Positions 50,453 to 55,557 of a DNA stretch of 64,000 nucleotides are shown piece after piece. The translations under genes were made by a program, and so were the position numbers. Under the pieces are notes generated by a model. The model was not told where the DNA came from. It did not search any database and saw only the letters and a list, made by a program, of their open reading frames with translations. The DNA comes from Lachnospiraceae bacterium (GTDB lineage Bacteria; Bacillota; Clostridia; Lachnospirales; Lachnospiraceae), in contig JAFZUY010000010.1 of the NCBI GenBank assembly GCA_017618075.1, forward strand, positions 1 to 64,000, read 5' to 3'. The number at the start of each line of letters is the position of its first letter. Positions within the stretch are counted from its first letter, which is position 1.

Positions 50453-52066
50453 TTATTTTCTTCTTTTATGAATTGTAATGATTAAAAAGATACCCATGCC
50501 GAATGCGCCGACAAATCCCGCGAATCCGAGTGCCGGAATGCCAAGGACCTGAGGCTGCATGTTGGTGGTGCAGATCATGGCCGAGCTAATGATTACAGAA
50601 GCCATGATGATGCAAAGAATCATGTCTCCGACCAATATTTCCACTCTCCTCATAAGCGAGTCAAATCCGACGGGTTCGATGTTTATCTTCGTCTGGCCCT
50701 TGATAACCGACTTCATCATATCTGCCGAGAGCGACGGAATCGTGAGAGATTTTTTAGCCGAATCATATACCGCTTTGGCGTCGCCTATCATCTCCTGCTT
50801 TAAGTCAAATTCATTGAGCAGATCCTGCATGACTTTGCCGGAGAAAAGTTCTGCCATATTTACGTCTACATTAAGGCTTGTGACCACACCCTCAATTGTA
50901 ACAAGTGCACGGACAAGCATTGAAAAACCTCTCGGAAGCGAAATGCCGTGAGCGGCCGCAAGTTCGACCACATCGTTTAAAAGCTCGCCCATATTGAGGT
51001 CCTCAAGACTCATGGAGCAGTAACGGTCCATCATATCGTCGATGTCGTTAAAGAGTTCCGGATGGTTGATTTCCTTCTGCGGTTTTCCTAAGGAAAGAAC
51101 CGCATTTTTCATCAGATTGACATCCTTTTGAACTACCGCTGTGATGGCGGTTTTAAGGATGTTCTGCTCTTTTTTGCCAAATCGGCCGACCATGCCCCAG
51201 TCAAGCCATACAATCTTGCCGTTTAAAATCTCAAGATTTCCCTGATGGGGATCTGCATGGAACAGTCCGTCGTCGAGTACCTGTTTTAAAAAGTTATTTA
51301 CAAGCTTGGTTGCAACTTCCTTGCGGTCATACCCTTCGCTGTCGAGTTTCTCTATATTGCCGATAGAAAAGCCGTCGATATAGCTCATAGTAAGGACACG
51401 CTGTGTGGTGTAATCCTCTTCGATTACAGGACATGTTACATAATTGATGCCTTCCATATTGCGGGCAAATTCCAGCGTGGTTTCAGCCTCAATACGGAAA
51501 TCCAGTTCGTTAATTGAAACCTCTTTTAACTCCTCGACCAGCATGTTAAAGTCTATGGTCTGGTTTATCGGAGAGATCTTGGCCATCTTGGCAGCCTTGG
51601 TTAAAAGCGCAAAATCCTTCATCATCATATCAGCCACGTAAGGGCGCTGAACTTTGATGACAACTCTTCTTCCGTCAGGAAGGACGGCTGCATGAACCTG
51701 CGCTATGGATGCGCTGCCTAAAGGTTTTTCGTCTATGGATTTAAAGAGTTCGTTAATCGGTTTGCCGAGTTCGCTCTCTATTTCTTTTTTAATAATTTCT
51801 ATATCAAGCGGTTTTACATACGCACGTAAAAGTTCAAGTTCCTTGCAGTATTCCTTGGGAAGAAAGTCTCCTCTTGAACTCATTATCTGACCGATTTTTA
51901 TAAAAGTCGGACCGAGGTCCTCTAAGATATGTCTTAAGTTCTCGGGTGTCAGACCGTTTTTTACGATATTGTGTTTTCTAATAACACTTAAAATTTCTTC
52001 GAGACGCTTGGTCTCATCAAACATTTCGCGGGGGATGCTTCGTAACTTCATTTCAGTTCTGGTCAT
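50453..52066 (-). CDS. ABC1/UbiB atypical kinase family protein
   Basis: From ATG 52066 (GGAGG 8 nt upstream; the GTG three codons earlier lies in the ribosome site) the protein has 537 residues. It has the family KxGQ motif in FIKIGQIMSSR, the alanine-rich loop GSASIAQVHAA, the lysine in VVIKVQRP, the catalytic-loop-like FHADPHQGNLEI and WLDWGMVGRF metal site, and two C-terminal helices at about 480-535. In proteobacteria the family supports ubiquinone synthesis; its role in quinone-poor anaerobes is not established. It overlaps the phasin-like gene by 14 bp. Confidence 0.92.
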   Translation of the reverse strand: MTRTEMKLRSIPREMFDETKRLEEILSVIRKHNIVKNGLTPENLRHILEDLGPTFIKIGQIMSSRGDFLPKEYCKELELLRAYVKPLDIEIIKKEIESELGKPINELFKSIDEKPLGSASIAQVHAAVLPDGRRVVIKVQRPYVADMMMKDFALLTKAAKMAKISPINQTIDFNMLVEELKEVSINELDFRIEAETTLEFARNMEGINYVTCPVIEEDYTTQRVLTMSYIDGFSIGNIEKLDSEGYDRKEVATKLVNNFLKQVLDDGLFHADPHQGNLEILNGKIVWLDWGMVGRFGKKEQNILKTAITAVVQKDVNLMKNAVLSLGKPQKEINHPELFNDIDDMMDRYCSMSLEDLNMGELLNDVVELAAAHGISLPRGFSMLVRALVTIEGVVTSLNVDVNMAELFSGKVMQDLLNEFDLKQEMIGDAKAVYDSAKKSLTIPSLSADMMKSVIKGQTKINIEPVGFDSLMRRVEILVGDMILCIIMASVIISSAMICTTNMQPQVLGIPALGFAGFVGAFGMGIFLIITIHKRRK

Positions 52067-52463
52067 CTTCTGCACCTCCTTCCGCTGTATGAATACTTAT
52101 GGCCTTTCTGCCGTCGTCTTCTTTTATGGCTTCTACGGATACTTCTTTGGTTCCGTAAACGGGAGTCTTTGACAGTTCGAGATTTCTTTCTATTACTTTT
52201 CCGTCTTCGTCCTTAACTTCATTAAAATAAAGGCTCTTTCCGTCTCCGAGATCAAGCGAATTGTCTTCTCTCTTTCGCTCTTCTCTTTTACGCATGATTT
52301 CTTCGCGATTGCCGTTATAAAGGAGCTCTTCGTTGTCAACATTTCCCAAGCCCAGCACTTCGCTTCCGCGGCGAAGCAGGTCTTTTATTTCTTCGTTTTG
52401 TTCATCTATGGTTCCTAGTCCGGCAAGAATAATTTTTTTGGTCACATCAGTTACCATACTCAT
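52053..52463 (-). CDS. Phasin-like protein of unknown function
   Basis: The 136-residue protein (start ATG 52463 with AAGGTGA upstream; the frame extends to a TTG at 52499) begins with VTKKIILAGLGTIDEQNEEIKDLLRRG, a helix like that of phasin/PhaF-type proteins, followed by a charged, Lys/Glu-rich region and a beta-rich C terminus. Genes of this kind are frequently found before ABC1-kinase genes in Clostridia. It overlaps that gene by 14 bp. The function is inferred only loosely. Confidence 0.65.
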   Translation of the reverse strand: MSMVTDVTKKIILAGLGTIDEQNEEIKDLLRRGSEVLGLGNVDNEELLYNGNREEIMRKREERKREDNSLDLGDGKSLYFNEVKDEDGKVIERNLELSKTPVYGTKEVSVEAIKEDDGRKAISIHTAEGGAEDDQN

Positions 52464-52563
52464 GATTAAATCACCTTCTTTTTTCCGTCCTTTAATCAAA
52501 AACTCATATTAAATATATTATACTTCTTCCCACAAAAAATAAAAGCCAGGATACTCAATATCC

Positions 52564-52591
52564 TTGACTTCACAAATGATTGGTTTATAAT
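52564..52591 (+). promoter_or_regulatory. Antitoxin RNA promoter
   Basis: TTGACT (52564-52569) and TATAAT (52586-52591) are 16 bp apart. It points toward the toxin gene from its 3' side. Confidence 0.8.
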
Positions 52592-52597
52592 AATTAT

Positions 52598-52678
52598 AGG
52601 TGCTACCGATAGACGGTTGCCCTTGAGTTATTTAAAATGAATTAAAATAATCGCCGGCTAGGGCGGTTATTTTTTTGT
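52598..52678 (+). ncRNA. Predicted antitoxin RNA of a type I toxin-antitoxin locus
   Basis: A transcript from the 52564 promoter would begin near GGTGCTACCGATAGACGG and end at the terminator at 52646-52678, about 80 nt, with no ORF. Its 3' end overlaps and is complementary to the last codons and terminator of the toxin mRNA. Its first 25 nt are nearly the same as the first part of the toxin mRNA (an inverted repeat in the DNA). Boundaries are predicted from the promoter and terminator only. Confidence 0.75.
52646..52678. terminator. Shared bidirectional terminator of toxin mRNA and antitoxin RNA
   Basis: A 10-bp stem (AATAATCGCC / GGCGGTTATT, one G-T pair) with a 6-nt loop is followed by T residues on both strands. 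The toxin stop codon lies inside the stem. Confidence 0.85.
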
Positions 52679-52759
52679 GTCATGACTTATCAAATAAATG
52701 ACAGTCACCAATGCAACAATAAATATTCCAATTTGGATTAAATCCGAATATGAAACCAT
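52667..52759 (-). CDS. Holin-like type I toxin peptide
   Basis: A 30-residue peptide, MVSYSDLIQIGIFIVALVTV followed by IYLISHDTKK, matches the putative holin-like toxin family (TxpA/BsrG-like type I toxins): short, one membrane helix, basic C terminus. An ATG two codons upstream (52765) touches the ribosome site; the second ATG with GGAGG 8 nt upstream and the usual family N terminus is preferred. Such peptides disrupt the membrane when expressed without the antitoxin RNA. It lies between the phasin-like gene and a lipoprotein gene, with its own promoter at 52843-52871 and the antitoxin RNA opposite. Confidence 0.88.
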   Translation of the reverse strand: MVSYSDLIQIGIFIVALVTVIYLISHDTKK

Positions 52760-52766
52760 TGGCATC

Positions 52767-52810
52767 CCCTCCTTTCAAAAAGATTGGAGGGCCACACCCT
52801 CCGAAGAGGG
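52767..52810 (-). promoter_or_regulatory. Toxin mRNA leader with four alternating complementary segments
   Basis: On the minus strand, segments are CCCTC (52806-52810), GGAGGG (52797-52802), CCCTCC (52786-52791) and GGAGGG (52767-52772, the ribosome site). Segments 1-2 can form a stem closed by a TTCG tetraloop and 3-4 a hairpin that hides the ribosome site; alternatively segments 2-3 pair and leave it free. This is a switch-like arrangement that may control toxin translation. Confidence 0.6.
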
Positions 52811-52842
52811 CAACCGCCTACCGTTATTGGTAGCACTTTCTC

Positions 52843-52871
52843 ATTCTACCAAATATCTTTTTTATTGTAAA
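52843..52871 (-). promoter_or_regulatory. Toxin promoter
   Basis: On the minus strand TTTACA (52866-52871) and TAGAAT (52843-52848) are 17 bp apart; the start site falls at about 52836, where the GTGCTACC sequence begins. Confidence 0.8.
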
Positions 52872-52920: not shown

Positions 52921-54441
52921 TTATTCTTCCTCATAATTCATGGATTCGAGGAATACTCCGAAGGACTTCGCCATATTTTCGATTGTAACATCGTCAAACC
53001 ATAAAAGATTGACGGTTTTATCGGCATCATCTCTAACATGATTCATTAATATTGAGTAATCAACAGATTTTATCTCATTCTCATTATCATCGAAGTAAGT
53101 GGCTTTCCTGCCGTCTTCGTCTTCGATTAATTCCTGTGCACTGACTTTTTCAAATACTACGGAATTTATCTGGATTGAAATGTAATAATTTTGAATAAAA
53201 TAAGTGTCTTCACTGTAATTTGTTTTACCCTCTGCCAGATACCTGTATATATCCTGATATTTGTTATAAGAATAGAAGCAAAGTAGTTCATTCATATCGT
53301 ACAAAGCCGGCTGTATGGATGTATTATTTGTTTTCACCCTTTGTATGCTTCTGTCTTCTGTGGTTTCATAAATATATAAGAAACAGGTGTCATCTTTATC
53401 GCGCCCCGAAACTATCACTTCGGGACAGCCGTTCATATCAAGATCGGTAATAGCATATTTATATATAAGTTCGGCCTTTTCTTCGTTCTCAGTCTCATCT
53501 GTTTCTTCATTTTCAGCTGTATCTGAATCTTCCGGCTCAATTTCGTCTGCTTCAACACAAATCTCGTCAATTTCCCACTCATCCGCATTTTCAAAAAGAA
53601 CATTTATAGGCTGAACATATTCAATATCTACACTCCCCCAGACTTTCTCATCCATAAGATAATAAGTTCTCGATTCACACTCAAACGATTTATAGTCCTC
53701 GGAAAATGCTGCTTCAAAGGAGTAGTATGCTCCCCATCCACCATCCGGCGCTTCATACATTTCTATTCTGTTTTCATCTTCCGACAGCCACTTAAAAGAG
53801 ATGCCGGGACATTCGGTAAATTCGTTCCTCTTTCCATCATAAAAGAGTAAATAACTGCCTGTGTACTCCTCATCGGATATGTTAAAGTAAGAACCGTCTT
53901 CGCTGATCCATTTGCCCTTTATTGTCGCAAGAATATTGTCACTTACTTCCCGGGCGATTTTGATGTTCTCCTGTATCTTGTATTCATTTATTGCCTGATT
54001 TCTCTGCTCTTCGAGTGTATAGTATTTTTCCTTATCTCCCGAATAATCAACCCATCCGAGATCGTCAGCCCAGTAGCGCCAGATTGTTGCGTACTCTTTG
54101 GAGTCGAGATATCTGAATTCTACATCAAGCCAATTGCTTGTTGCACTAACGGAAGTAATTGCCGAAGGATCATCATAATAAATTATCAGGGTTTTGTTTT
54201 TTACTTCCTCTTCATAATCCCGTACATTTTCTACACCAAACCAAAAATTATCAAGATTGTATTCACCTTTAAAAGTGATTTCCACCCTGTCATCATAATA
54301 TTCGGTTTTGGTTATATACAAATTATCACAATGTTTGATGTCTTTTATGTTGTAAGTATATGTATTTAGTTTTTTTCCGCAGCCTGCAATAAAAAGAACA
54401 TTTAAAAGCACTGCAAATATCAATAATAGTTTGTTCTTCAT
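52921..54441 (-). CDS. Lipoprotein of unknown function
   Basis: From ATG 54441 (AGGGAGGG upstream) the protein has 506 residues with a lipoprotein signal (MKNKLLLIFAVLLNVLF..., lipobox IAGC). It is acidic, with a low-complexity D/E/T stretch near residue 310 (EPEDSDTAENEETDETE). Two sub-regions resemble domains in other Lachnospiraceae lipoproteins: a beta-rich N-terminal half with GKWISEDGSYFNIS and a C-terminal part with KYAITDLDMNGCPEVIVSG, like the calcium-binding DxDxNG loop in repeats of cell-surface proteins. Function unknown. Confidence 0.75.
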   Translation of the reverse strand: MKNKLLLIFAVLLNVLFIAGCGKKLNTYTYNIKDIKHCDNLYITKTEYYDDRVEITFKGEYNLDNFWFGVENVRDYEEEVKNKTLIIYYDDPSAITSVSATSNWLDVEFRYLDSKEYATIWRYWADDLGWVDYSGDKEKYYTLEEQRNQAINEYKIQENIKIAREVSDNILATIKGKWISEDGSYFNISDEEYTGSYLLFYDGKRNEFTECPGISFKWLSEDENRIEMYEAPDGGWGAYYSFEAAFSEDYKSFECESRTYYLMDEKVWGSVDIEYVQPINVLFENADEWEIDEICVEADEIEPEDSDTAENEETDETENEEKAELIYKYAITDLDMNGCPEVIVSGRDKDDTCFLYIYETTEDRSIQRVKTNNTSIQPALYDMNELLCFYSYNKYQDIYRYLAEGKTNYSEDTYFIQNYYISIQINSVVFEKVSAQELIEDEDGRKATYFDDNENEIKSVDYSILMNHVRDDADKTVNLLWFDDVTIENMAKSFGVFLESMNYEEE

Positions 54442-54609
54442 GGTCTGCCCTCCCTGCGCCATCTGCTTTATGTAACAGATACGATTGAGCAATCTTAATT
54501 TATTGACTTTTTTTATTTTTTACCATAAATAATATTTTCTATATTCGTATGTATGATAGAAAACCCCATACTATATTTATTTTACATCGTTTAACGGAGG
54601 GAATAAAGA

Positions 54610-55557
54610 ATGAAAAAGAGCTCTATTAAATCACTGGTTTATGGCCTGACGGTAGCTATTGCGGCTGCAGGAATGTTAATCGGATGTGCAAATTCTGCTT
54701 CCGCACCAGTTGAATTGGAATCCATAGATACGCTACTTGAAGCCGACCCGATCATAAAAGAAACTGAAGATGAAGTTTTAGCTGATGACACTTCTAATGA
54801 AAACGAACCGGAAAAGGAATATAAAGAAGTTAACGGAACCGGCTATGTCGGCGATTATAAATATATTCTTGAAGGAGCGGAGGAAAACGGTCCCGACTAC
54901 GACCGCGGATGGTTTCTTGAAACCGCTGACGGCACCAATGAATGCATAATCGTAATCTGCTCCGGCAAAAAAAGCACGGGCGGATATTCAATAAAAATCG
55001 TCGATATGGATTATGAAGAAAACGATGATCTTGTAACAATCACCGTAAATGAAGCATCCCCCGAAGGAGCAACAGTAACCGACGCTTTTACATGGCCCAC
55101 CTGCTATATTTACTTTAGTGCACGTCCTAAGAATGTTAAGGTTGTAAACACTGACGGAGATGAATTGACTTATCAGGGCGGATACCAGGAAGAATTCGTT
55201 GACGGCAAAGACCATATCGCGGTTTTCATCGCAGGCGCAGGAGAAATCTCACAGAAGACCTATGTCTATAAAACCGATGACGGCAGATACCGCTATGTAA
55301 ATGTTACCGCCGTCACCGAAAGCTGGGGAAGCACAAAATGGAAAGAAACACTCAAGGGTTCAGGCGTTGTGGATACAAAAGAAGAAATCGTCGAAGTAGC
55401 AAAAATGCATAATTCCTGCGGAACCGTAATGTATACAGGTGAATTTACACCCATAGATCTTTCGGAATTGGAATCAGGCGGTACGATAGAAGTTCCTCTT
55501 GTCGATATCTATTCCCTATATCATACTGCCGAAGATTTTTTAAACAGTGATTACTAA
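54610..55557 (+). CDS. Lipoprotein with PrcB-like C-terminal domain
   Basis: The 315-residue protein has a lipoprotein signal (lipobox LIGC at about residue 26), a 35-residue acidic linker, and a domain with ECIIVICSGKKSTGGYSIKI, then ITVNEASPEGATVTDAF and WPTCYIYFSA, which matches the PrcB_C pattern known from a spirochaete protease complex. A second half from about residue 190 is unrelated and has no recognised domain. ACGGAGGG precedes the ATG. It is divergent from the lipoprotein at 52921. Confidence 0.75.
   Translation: MKKSSIKSLVYGLTVAIAAAGMLIGCANSASAPVELESIDTLLEADPIIKETEDEVLADDTSNENEPEKEYKEVNGTGYVGDYKYILEGAEENGPDYDRGWFLETADGTNECIIVICSGKKSTGGYSIKIVDMDYEENDDLVTITVNEASPEGATVTDAFTWPTCYIYFSARPKNVKVVNTDGDELTYQGGYQEEFVDGKDHIAVFIAGAGEISQKTYVYKTDDGRYRYVNVTAVTESWGSTKWKETLKGSGVVDTKEEIVEVAKMHNSCGTVMYTGEFTPIDLSELESGGTIEVPLVDIYSLYHTAEDFLNSDY

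What the first reader, a model, noticed from the sequence alone, without database searches (positions are those of the whole stretch)
52564..52871. Complete holin-like type I toxin-antitoxin locus with mirror-image 5' ends
A 30-residue membrane toxin on the minus strand and a predicted antitoxin RNA on the plus strand converge on one shared bidirectional terminator. Each has a near-consensus promoter. The first 25 nt or so of both RNAs are nearly identical (GTGCTACC ... ACGGTTGCCCT), so the DNA carries an inverted repeat at 52600-52624 and 52806-52836. That suggests an inverted duplication or a role for the common 5' sequence, such as RNA-RNA kissing.
Basis: partly seen in the sequence, partly recalled or inferred. 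Interest (0 to 1): 0.7.

Follow-up and report, generated by a model that had tools for sequence, protein, structure and literature searches.

The report
Toxin–antitoxin locus with twin RNA heads
A short membrane-peptide gene and a small RNA that probably silences it start with nearly the same RNA sequence, and this twin start recurs in many gut and rumen bacteria, which points to a shared off-switch in a common but apparently undescribed form of RNA-controlled toxin.

Summary
Toxin ORF 52667-52759(-) hits Pfam Hol_Tox. The predicted antitoxin (AT) RNA starts near 52600(+), the toxin RNA near 52836(-); both begin GTGCTACC and share CGGTTGCCCT. In the window alone the repeat is no better than chance; comparison makes it convincing. 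A script found 142 convergent AT/toxin pairs. In 109 non-redundant pairs the first four RNA bases are identical in 76 (permuted mean 34, maximum 45 of 5000); in 48 stricter pairs in 39 (permuted 17, maximum 26 of 10000), in ten versions. Identity rises sharply at the inferred start sites. An AT covariance model hits 47 of 120 genomes of the family, own genome included; Rfam has no match.

The toxin RNA's head is complementary to, and co-varies with, its own ribosome-binding site (0 of 10000 permutations as good), so it is best read as a cis anti-Shine-Dalgarno element of which the AT carries a copy. Trans action of that copy is not shown: support is weak once the toxin head is controlled for, and co-folding rarely predicts it. 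Layout resembles par/Fst and SprA/SprA-AS. A recent inverted duplication is rejected; kissing is neither shown nor excluded. New variant of type I toxin-antitoxin; no expression or toxicity data were available.

The parts
52564..52591 (+). predicted antitoxin promoter (TTGACT-16-TATAAT)
   Evidence: consensus scan 11/12; similar elements seen by eye upstream of many relatives' AT heads; not an experimental start site
52600..52677 (+). predicted antitoxin RNA, about 78 nt: head hairpin, spacer, terminator
   Evidence: covariance model R1 hits 52600-52674 with 69 bits, E 1.4e-13 (the window's own sequence, as L001, is in the model); 5' end inferred
52600..52624 (+). antitoxin head GTGCTACCGATAGACGGTTGCCCTT: left arm of the inverted repeat; hairpin ACCG/CGGT
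   Evidence: near-invariant in 37 aligned AT RNAs, 22 of which were fetched by an exact head pattern; fold
52644..52673 (.). terminator hairpin shared by both RNAs; T-run strong in the antitoxin direction, weaker in the toxin direction
52667..52759 (-). Hol_Tox peptide, 30 aa (32 aa if started at 52765)
   Evidence: Pfam PF16935, 28.7 bits for the 32-aa form and 29 bits for the 30-aa form
52760..52775 (-). toxin ribosome-binding site GAAAGGAGGGGATGCC
   Evidence: sequence; pairs with the toxin head at -17.8 and with the AT head at -12.5 kcal/mol by RNAduplex (row L001)
52786..52802 (-). leader hairpin GGAGGG/CCCTCC (competes for the head or the Shine-Dalgarno sequence)
52806..52836 (-). toxin RNA head GTGCTACCAATAACGGTAGGCGGTTGCCCTC: right arm of the inverted repeat; hairpin CTACC/GGTAG, then anti-Shine-Dalgarno segment
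   Evidence: the five hairpin pairs are standard in 102-107 of 107 leaders, but vary only by G-U, so no compensatory change; co-varies with the RBS
52843..52871 (-). predicted toxin promoter (TTTACA-17-TAGAAT)
   Evidence: consensus scan 10/12 with TG before the second hexamer

Best explanation
A chromosomal type I toxin-antitoxin locus with par/Fst-like layout in a Lachnospiraceae bacterium. The toxin RNA starts with a small hairpin followed by an anti-Shine-Dalgarno (anti-SD) segment (GGCGGUUGCCCUC) that folds onto the toxin's own ribosome-binding site (or onto a competing leader segment), so fresh toxin mRNA is poorly translated. The antitoxin RNA, made convergently, starts with the same head and ends in the shared terminator. 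It is proposed to contact the toxin mRNA through the complementary terminator/3' overlap (specific to each locus) and to use its copy of the head to hold the toxin's translation start region, or the toxin head, in the closed state. The mirror-image 5' ends exist because both RNAs carry a head made for the same toxin mRNA. Shown by sequence statistics: the paired heads change together, and the toxin head co-varies with its RBS. Inferred: transcription, toxicity, repression, and the trans action of the AT head.
For: Pfam hit. First four head bases identical in 76 of 109 pairs (permuted mean 34.1, maximum 45 of 5000) and 39 of 48 strict pairs (permuted 17.3, maximum 26 of 10000) in ten versions. 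Further set: 40 of the 57 model hits in genomes not used before were fetched; in 21 of 40 a toxin head was found by pattern and 11 of 21 share the first four bases (permuted 4.4, maximum 10; the first, cruder register gave 8 of 21, permuted 3.7, maximum 8). Distal five bases identical in 62 of 109 (permuted 25.4, maximum 36) and 27 of 46 (permuted 11.6, maximum 20). Toxin head versus RBS over 107 loci: -13.93 native, -12.79 permuted, 0 of 10000 as good; reversed target -9.11; downstream coding control no signal. It holds in the strict set (0 of 10000, 46 loci) and within groups of equal AT distal segment (0 of 10000). AT head versus RBS: 41 of 10000, 183 of 10000 (strict). Same-genus loci L039, L040 and L042 lost the toxin promoter, leader and start, with similarity ending at three different places, and kept the AT. 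Papers on par (PMC7472228) and SprA2 (PMC6393315) report that convergent antitoxins act at the toxin translation start (passages read).
Against: No expression, 5'-end or toxicity data. With the toxin distal segment held fixed, AT-RBS complementarity is only suggestive (632 of 10000). Co-folding predicts AT-SD pairing above 0.3 in 2 of 108 loci, against 48 of 108 for the toxin's own head; with the toxin head blocked, true and permuted AT do alike (29 of 108 versus 25 and 29). In single-RNA folding the head-SD probability is only modestly above that with heads permuted (0.37 versus 0.29-0.34; head-segment 2 0.21 versus 0.14-0.17). AT head versus leader segment 2: no co-variation (8356 of 10000). 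AT first 34 nt versus whole leader: not locus-specific. The identity of the first four bases is not explained by RBS pairing. In 19 of 40 further loci no toxin head was found, though six of those have a small toxin-like ORF by eye. A small excess of identity also lies upstream of the start (324 of 872 versus 288, sd 10.7; 135 of 384 versus 119, sd 7.6; 74 of 168 versus 53.7, sd 5.6). Permutations do not remove shared ancestry.
Confidence: 0.5

Rival explanations
1. Mutual head-to-head pairing: the two identical, nearly self-complementary heads (hairpin ACC/GGT plus GGUURGCC) open and pair with each other (kissing or strand exchange), starting an AT-toxin RNA duplex; identity is kept because each head must fit the other.
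For: AT-toxin head pairing is better in native than permuted pairs (0 of 10000) and far better than reversed controls (-11.15 versus -6.17). GGUURGCC is self-complementary if G-U pairs are allowed (read from the sequences).
Against: The native excess follows automatically from identity plus self-complementarity. The hairpin loops are not complementary to each other (by eye). AT first 34 nt versus the whole leader is not locus-specific. Co-folding gives little AT-toxin head pairing (0.13 and 0.05).
Confidence: 0.2
2. DNA-level or evolutionary cause: a common operator at both start sites, or gene conversion between the inverted arms, keeps the ends alike with no RNA-RNA function.
For: Inverted repeats are prone to homogenisation (recalled knowledge). 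The first four bases have no identified pairing partner. Identity is weakly above chance just upstream of the start.
Against: The middle of the heads stays different while both flanks agree, which long conversion tracts would erase. Toxin loop length varies (listing), against a fixed operator. The toxin head co-varies with the RBS in the RNA sense. Identity rises sharply at the inferred start.
Confidence: 0.15
3. Both heads bind one trans-acting partner (RNA-binding protein, RNase or sRNA) that controls both RNAs.
For: Head sequence is more conserved than the toxin (with the ascertainment caveat). In several genomes different loci share almost the same heads (G013, G020).
Against: In G004 one locus has GCAT/GCAT and two have GTGC/GTGT, which suits coupling within a locus. 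The other genomes with several loci are mixed: G336 has one matching locus of four, G754 one of four. The test is thin.
Confidence: 0.1
4. End closure through read-through: toxin (or AT) transcripts that pass the weaker toxin-side terminator end in the complement of their own head, so 5' and 3' ends pair, as tac/fbi do in hok mRNA (recalled), to lock or stabilise the RNA.
For: The toxin-direction terminator is weaker (53 versus 98 of 109 with a good T-run). It would demand identity of the two heads within each locus.
Against: No evidence of read-through. The central part of the heads is consistently unlike, so the closed stem would be interrupted. AT heads persist where the toxin leader is lost.
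Confidence: 0.05

Closest known systems
par (fst/RNA I-RNA II) of plasmid pAD1 and the Fst family
   Same: Convergent promoters, small membrane peptide, shared terminator, a 5' upstream helix and cis sequestration of the SD in the toxin RNA (par as described in PMC7472228, passages read).
   Different: par RNAs pair through direct repeats DRa/DRb, which make the two RNAs complementary; here the heads form an inverted repeat, so the RNAs are alike. DRa/DRb are described there as poorly conserved; these heads are highly conserved. RNA II of pAD1 is about 40 nt, the AT here about 78 nt (inferred). Toxin hits Hol_Tox here.
SprA1/SprA1AS and SprA2/SprA2AS of Staphylococcus aureus
   Same: 3' overlap on opposite strands; the antitoxin's non-overlapping 5' end acts on the toxin RBS (PMC6393315, passages read).
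   Different: No shared, mirrored 5' sequence is mentioned in the passages read; different toxins.
BsrG (Rfam RF01412), Bacillus type I toxin mRNA
   Same: Lowest E-value of 15 sub-threshold Rfam matches around the locus: toxin strand, 52546-52828 minus, 23.7 bits, E 0.0011.
   Different: Far under the gathering score of 55; not a member by that test.
C. difficile type I loci (CD2517.1-RCd8 and others)
   Same: Convergent, overlapping small-peptide and antisense-RNA genes in Clostridia (PMC6563280 and PMC7699646, passages read).
   Different: The review describes long overlap and suggests an RNA-degradation mechanism. In its main text 'inverted repeat', 'direct repeat', 'Hol-Tox' and 'Lachnospir' do not occur; in PMC7699646 'inverted repeat', 'direct repeat' and 'PF16935' do not occur.

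Membership tests
Type I toxin-antitoxin | small hydrophobic toxin peptide | tested here: met
   30 aa, Hol_Tox hit; toxicity not testable
Type I toxin-antitoxin | RNA antitoxin that base-pairs with toxin mRNA and represses it | not testable with these tools
   antisense overlap at the terminator follows from the DNA; no expression or repression data
par/Fst family | convergent promoters and shared terminator | tested here: met
   by consensus only (T-run weak in the toxin direction)
par/Fst family | SD sequestered by an intramolecular structure of the toxin RNA | tested here: met
   predicted fold of window leader; toxin head-RBS co-variation; folding probability only modestly above permuted heads
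par/Fst family | direct repeats DRa/DRb that give AT-RBS complementarity | tested here: inconclusive
   AT head-RBS weakly better than permuted (41 of 10000), not clearly after stratification (632 of 10000); almost none in co-folding
par/Fst family | toxin homologous to Fst | tested here: not met
   only Pfam hit of the window toxin at E 1 or better is Hol_Tox; NCBIfam hits PepG1 and ComI far below cut-off
Hol_Tox (PF16935) | score over the curated cut-off | tested here: met
   28.7 versus 23.3 bits; only 13 of 44 toxins of related loci match it at E 0.1 or better
Any Rfam family | match at gathering score | tested here: not met
   0 matches in the 64-kb window; 15 sub-threshold matches around the locus, BsrG lowest in E-value
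Recent inverted duplication or mobile element with terminal repeats | arms identical throughout, confined to few genomes | tested here: not met
   heads differ consistently in the middle; widespread

The most novel reading that the evidence does not exclude
A large, undescribed class of type I systems in which the antitoxin is a trans-acting copy of the toxin mRNA's own 5' off-switch: the two RNAs evolve in concert as mirror-image heads, and the RNA control cassette is more conserved than the toxin it controls.
Probability: 0.27. Interest if true: 0.7.

Novelty: new variant of a known kind. Interest (0 to 1): 0.5.

Why it matters
The antitoxin RNA model hits 47 of 120 genomes of the family (one per genus, own genome included), so this looks like a common control element of gut and rumen bacteria with no Rfam match, and 31 of 44 of its toxins escape Pfam's Hol_Tox at E 0.1. 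If the heads work as proposed, it would be a type I system in which the antitoxin carries the same sequence as the toxin leader, alongside its complementary 3' end, and the conserved head makes such loci easy to find. Loci that lost the toxin but kept the antitoxin offer natural tests of what the antitoxin is for.

Tried and rejected
Phage and plasmid collections by DNA: only short hits (2 and 8 records, at most 11% of the query). One gapped pattern in viral contigs: none; other patterns gave 88 and 18 stretches, many of the 88 probably chance. PADLOC: no family for the toxin. RNAduplex of the AT's first 34 nt against whole leaders: not locus-specific. RNAalifold on whole leaders found only the first hairpin. 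Search for a partner of the first four head bases: no RBS signal, only weak signals with the head's own distal part and with upstream DNA. AT versus leader segment 2: no signal. Co-folding as a test of AT action at the SD: negative. In the 46 of 107 loci whose distal segments differ, the AT fits the RBS better in 27 and the toxin head in 19: undecided. Class-level search for the exact toxin-head pattern: 7 of 291 genomes; phylum-level exact AT pattern: 2 of 299, own genome included in both; exact patterns underestimate.

Ascertainment: loci L097-L214 were fetched by an exact pattern that fixes the third and fourth AT base and most of the head, so variation of the AT head is understated there; the permutations keep that set, but the high head conservation is partly selection. 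Dropped rows: 7 of 142 pairs without an ORF (at least one, L147 863, plainly spurious); redundancy filters 135 to 109 and 109 to 48; 2 of 109 and 2 of 48 lacking anchor motifs in duplex tests, 1 of 109 in folding tests; 44 of 48 toxins aligned (L029, L227, L249, L295 left out as doubtful ORF choices). Other ORF choices of the script are doubtful too (L299, L308).

A claim that this is not in print is limited to searches of open-licence PMC papers. Passages only were read of PMC6563280, PMC7699646, PMC7472228, PMC6393315, PMC4147584 (par, no 'inverted repeat'), PMC10903887 (phage holin-like toxin only in general terms) and PMC9045289 (a mapped start site for an unannotated holin-like toxin gene in Clostridium acetobutylicum).

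Full report
What is there. The window locus has a 30-aa membrane peptide at 52667-52759(-) that hits Pfam Hol_Tox over the cut-off. A sigma-70-like promoter at 52871-52843(-) lies before its RNA, and an opposing promoter at 52564-52591(+) lies before a predicted 78-nt RNA that ends in the hairpin 52644-52673. The two RNAs would begin GTGCTACCGATAGACGGTTGCCCT (AT) and GTGCTACCAATAACGGTAGGCGGTTGCCCTC (toxin). The repeat falls into two blocks out of register by about six bases. Exact inverted repeats of 10-12 nt are about as frequent in resampled sequence, so comparison with relatives is needed.

Same genome and relatives. The genome holds a second locus (G000 C47; L002/L096) with both heads and another small hydrophobic peptide. 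That peptide was not among the three matches when the own genome was searched with PF16935. Of 99 genomes searched, own included, 52 have a DNA match at E 0.1, a loose limit that admits about ten by chance. Of those 80 titles 41 say Lachnospiraceae; others name genera such as Butyrivibrio, Roseburia and Pseudobutyrivibrio, and a few Anaerovibrio, Selenomonadaceae, Megasphaera, Mogibacterium, Ruminococcus and Oscillospiraceae. A covariance model from 37 AT RNAs hits 47 of 120 genomes of the family at E 1e-4 or better, own genome included, and two places in the own genome at that level. Rfam has no match at gathering score.

The two heads evolve together. A script paired AT and toxin heads in convergent orientation in 142 places among 325 loci held; 135 have a small ORF. 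In 109 non-redundant pairs the first four RNA bases are identical in 76 (permuted mean 34.1, maximum 45 of 5000). Position by position, identity is close to that expected from composition upstream and jumps at the inferred start (0.97, 0.86, 0.89, 0.88 for the first four, expected 0.85, 0.51, 0.69, 0.74). A weak excess remains upstream (324 of 872 against 288; strict set 135 of 384 against 119). In the strict set of 48 the first four are identical in 39 (permuted 17.3, maximum 26 of 10000), in ten versions (GTGC, GAGC, GAGT, AGGC, TGGC, GTGT, GCAT, GCAG, ATGC, GTAC). The five bases after CGGT also agree (27 of 46; permuted 11.6, maximum 20), while the middle of the heads differs consistently.

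A further set. Of 57 model hits in genomes not used before, 40 were fetched. In 21 a toxin head was found, and 11 of 21 share the first four bases (permuted 4.4, maximum 10); the first, cruder register gave 8 of 21. In 19 of 40 no toxin head was found; six of these have a small toxin-like ORF by eye (L336, L349, L352, L357, L370, L374; L357 also has a loose head match). So the paired heads are frequent, not universal. Upstream identity here is 74 of 168 against 53.7.

What the toxin head does. RNAfold pairs the distal part of the toxin head with the Shine-Dalgarno region (mean probability 0.37; heads permuted 0.29-0.34) or with the next leader segment (0.21; permuted 0.14-0.17), a modest excess. 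The duplex test is clearer: toxin head and RBS are more complementary in true than in permuted pairs (-13.93 versus -12.79, 0 of 10000; coding control none; reversed target -9.11; 107 loci). This holds in the strict set and within groups of equal AT distal segment (0 of 10000 each). The head also fits the next leader segment (0 of 10000), so two alternative structures are likely. In the window, head and RBS pair at -17.8 kcal/mol. I regard the cis anti-SD role as well supported by sequence, with the caution that permutation does not remove shared ancestry.

What the antitoxin head does. The same sequence in the AT could act at the RBS in trans, as reported for par and SprA2 (PMC7472228 and PMC6393315, passages read). 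Support is modest: AT head-RBS is matched by 41 of 10000 permutations and 183 of 10000 (strict), but by 632 of 10000 once the toxin segment is fixed. Co-folding predicts AT-SD pairing above 0.3 in 2 of 108 loci, and with the toxin head blocked true AT do no better than permuted (29 versus 25 and 29 of 108). The first four bases have no identified partner. The AT head may act on the toxin head itself, or only after contact through the complementary 3' ends. This step is inference.

Within one genome. In G004 one locus has GCAT/GCAT and two have GTGC/GTGT, which suits coupling within a locus. G336 (one matching locus of four) and G754 (one of four) are mixed, and G013 and G020 carry nearly the same heads throughout. 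A shared trans partner is therefore not excluded.

Toxin loss. In three same-genus genomes the AT aligns from its promoter through the terminator, but similarity to the window ends at 52725 (L039), 52717 (L040) and 52705 (L042), so the toxin promoter, leader and start are missing. L039 and L042 rejoin the window's downstream flank (by eye); L040 has another flank and one changed head base. Different end points that all spare the AT fit a costly toxin and a harmless antitoxin.

Toxins. The 44 toxins aligned have a mean column identity of 28% and 13 of 44 match Hol_Tox at E 0.1 or better, while 14 columns are invariant in 37 AT RNAs. The RNA part looks more conserved than the peptide, but 22 of the 37 were fetched by an exact head pattern, so part of that is selection.

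Verdict. A real and widespread type I-like locus with par-like layout. The mirror-image 5' ends are genuine and tend to change in concert. The cis role of the toxin head is well supported; the trans role of the antitoxin head remains to be shown. No expression or toxicity was tested.

Noticed in passing
L039, L040, L042 (G004, G008, G020); compare window 52705-52725: Same-genus loci keep the antitoxin but lack the toxin promoter, leader and start, with similarity ending at three different places.
   Followed up: partly
L002 1300-1590 / L096 (own genome, contig C47): Second locus with both heads and another small hydrophobic peptide, which the Hol_Tox search of the own genome did not list.
   Followed up: partly
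L104, L108, L110, L155, L162, L168 and, in variant form, L152, L159, L163, L164: AT head directly preceded by a recurring hairpin-like sequence (CATCTG...CAGATG or variants) instead of an obvious -10 box, so the AT RNA may start further upstream in these lineages. Seen by eye in an output that was cut, so the list is partial.
   Followed up: no
L101 near the AT head; L059 near 163: Mini-loci in which AT and toxin heads, or a toxin head and a terminator, stand together without a toxin gene.
   Followed up: no
window 52786-52802 (-): A terminator-like hairpin with T-run lies inside the toxin leader (GGAGGGTGTGGCCCTCC AATCTTTTTG); whether relatives keep the T-run was not counted.
   Followed up: no
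L112, opposite strand downstream of the AT: A toxin head in which the first hairpin appears replaced by two longer inserted stems before CTGGCGGTTCGC.
   Followed up: no
viral contigs L233, L236, L240, L249, L277, L299, L306, L308, L318-L320, L323-L325: Paired loci of this kind were also found by script on contigs classed as viral, so some are probably carried by prophages.
   Followed up: no
window 50453-52075 (-), 52053-52499 (-), 52921-54492 (-), 54610-55557 (+): Neighbours: an ABC1-kinase-like protein, two proteins with no Pfam hit over cut-off, and a PrcB_C-domain protein; none of these four hit a phage or mobile-element family in Pfam.
   Followed up: no
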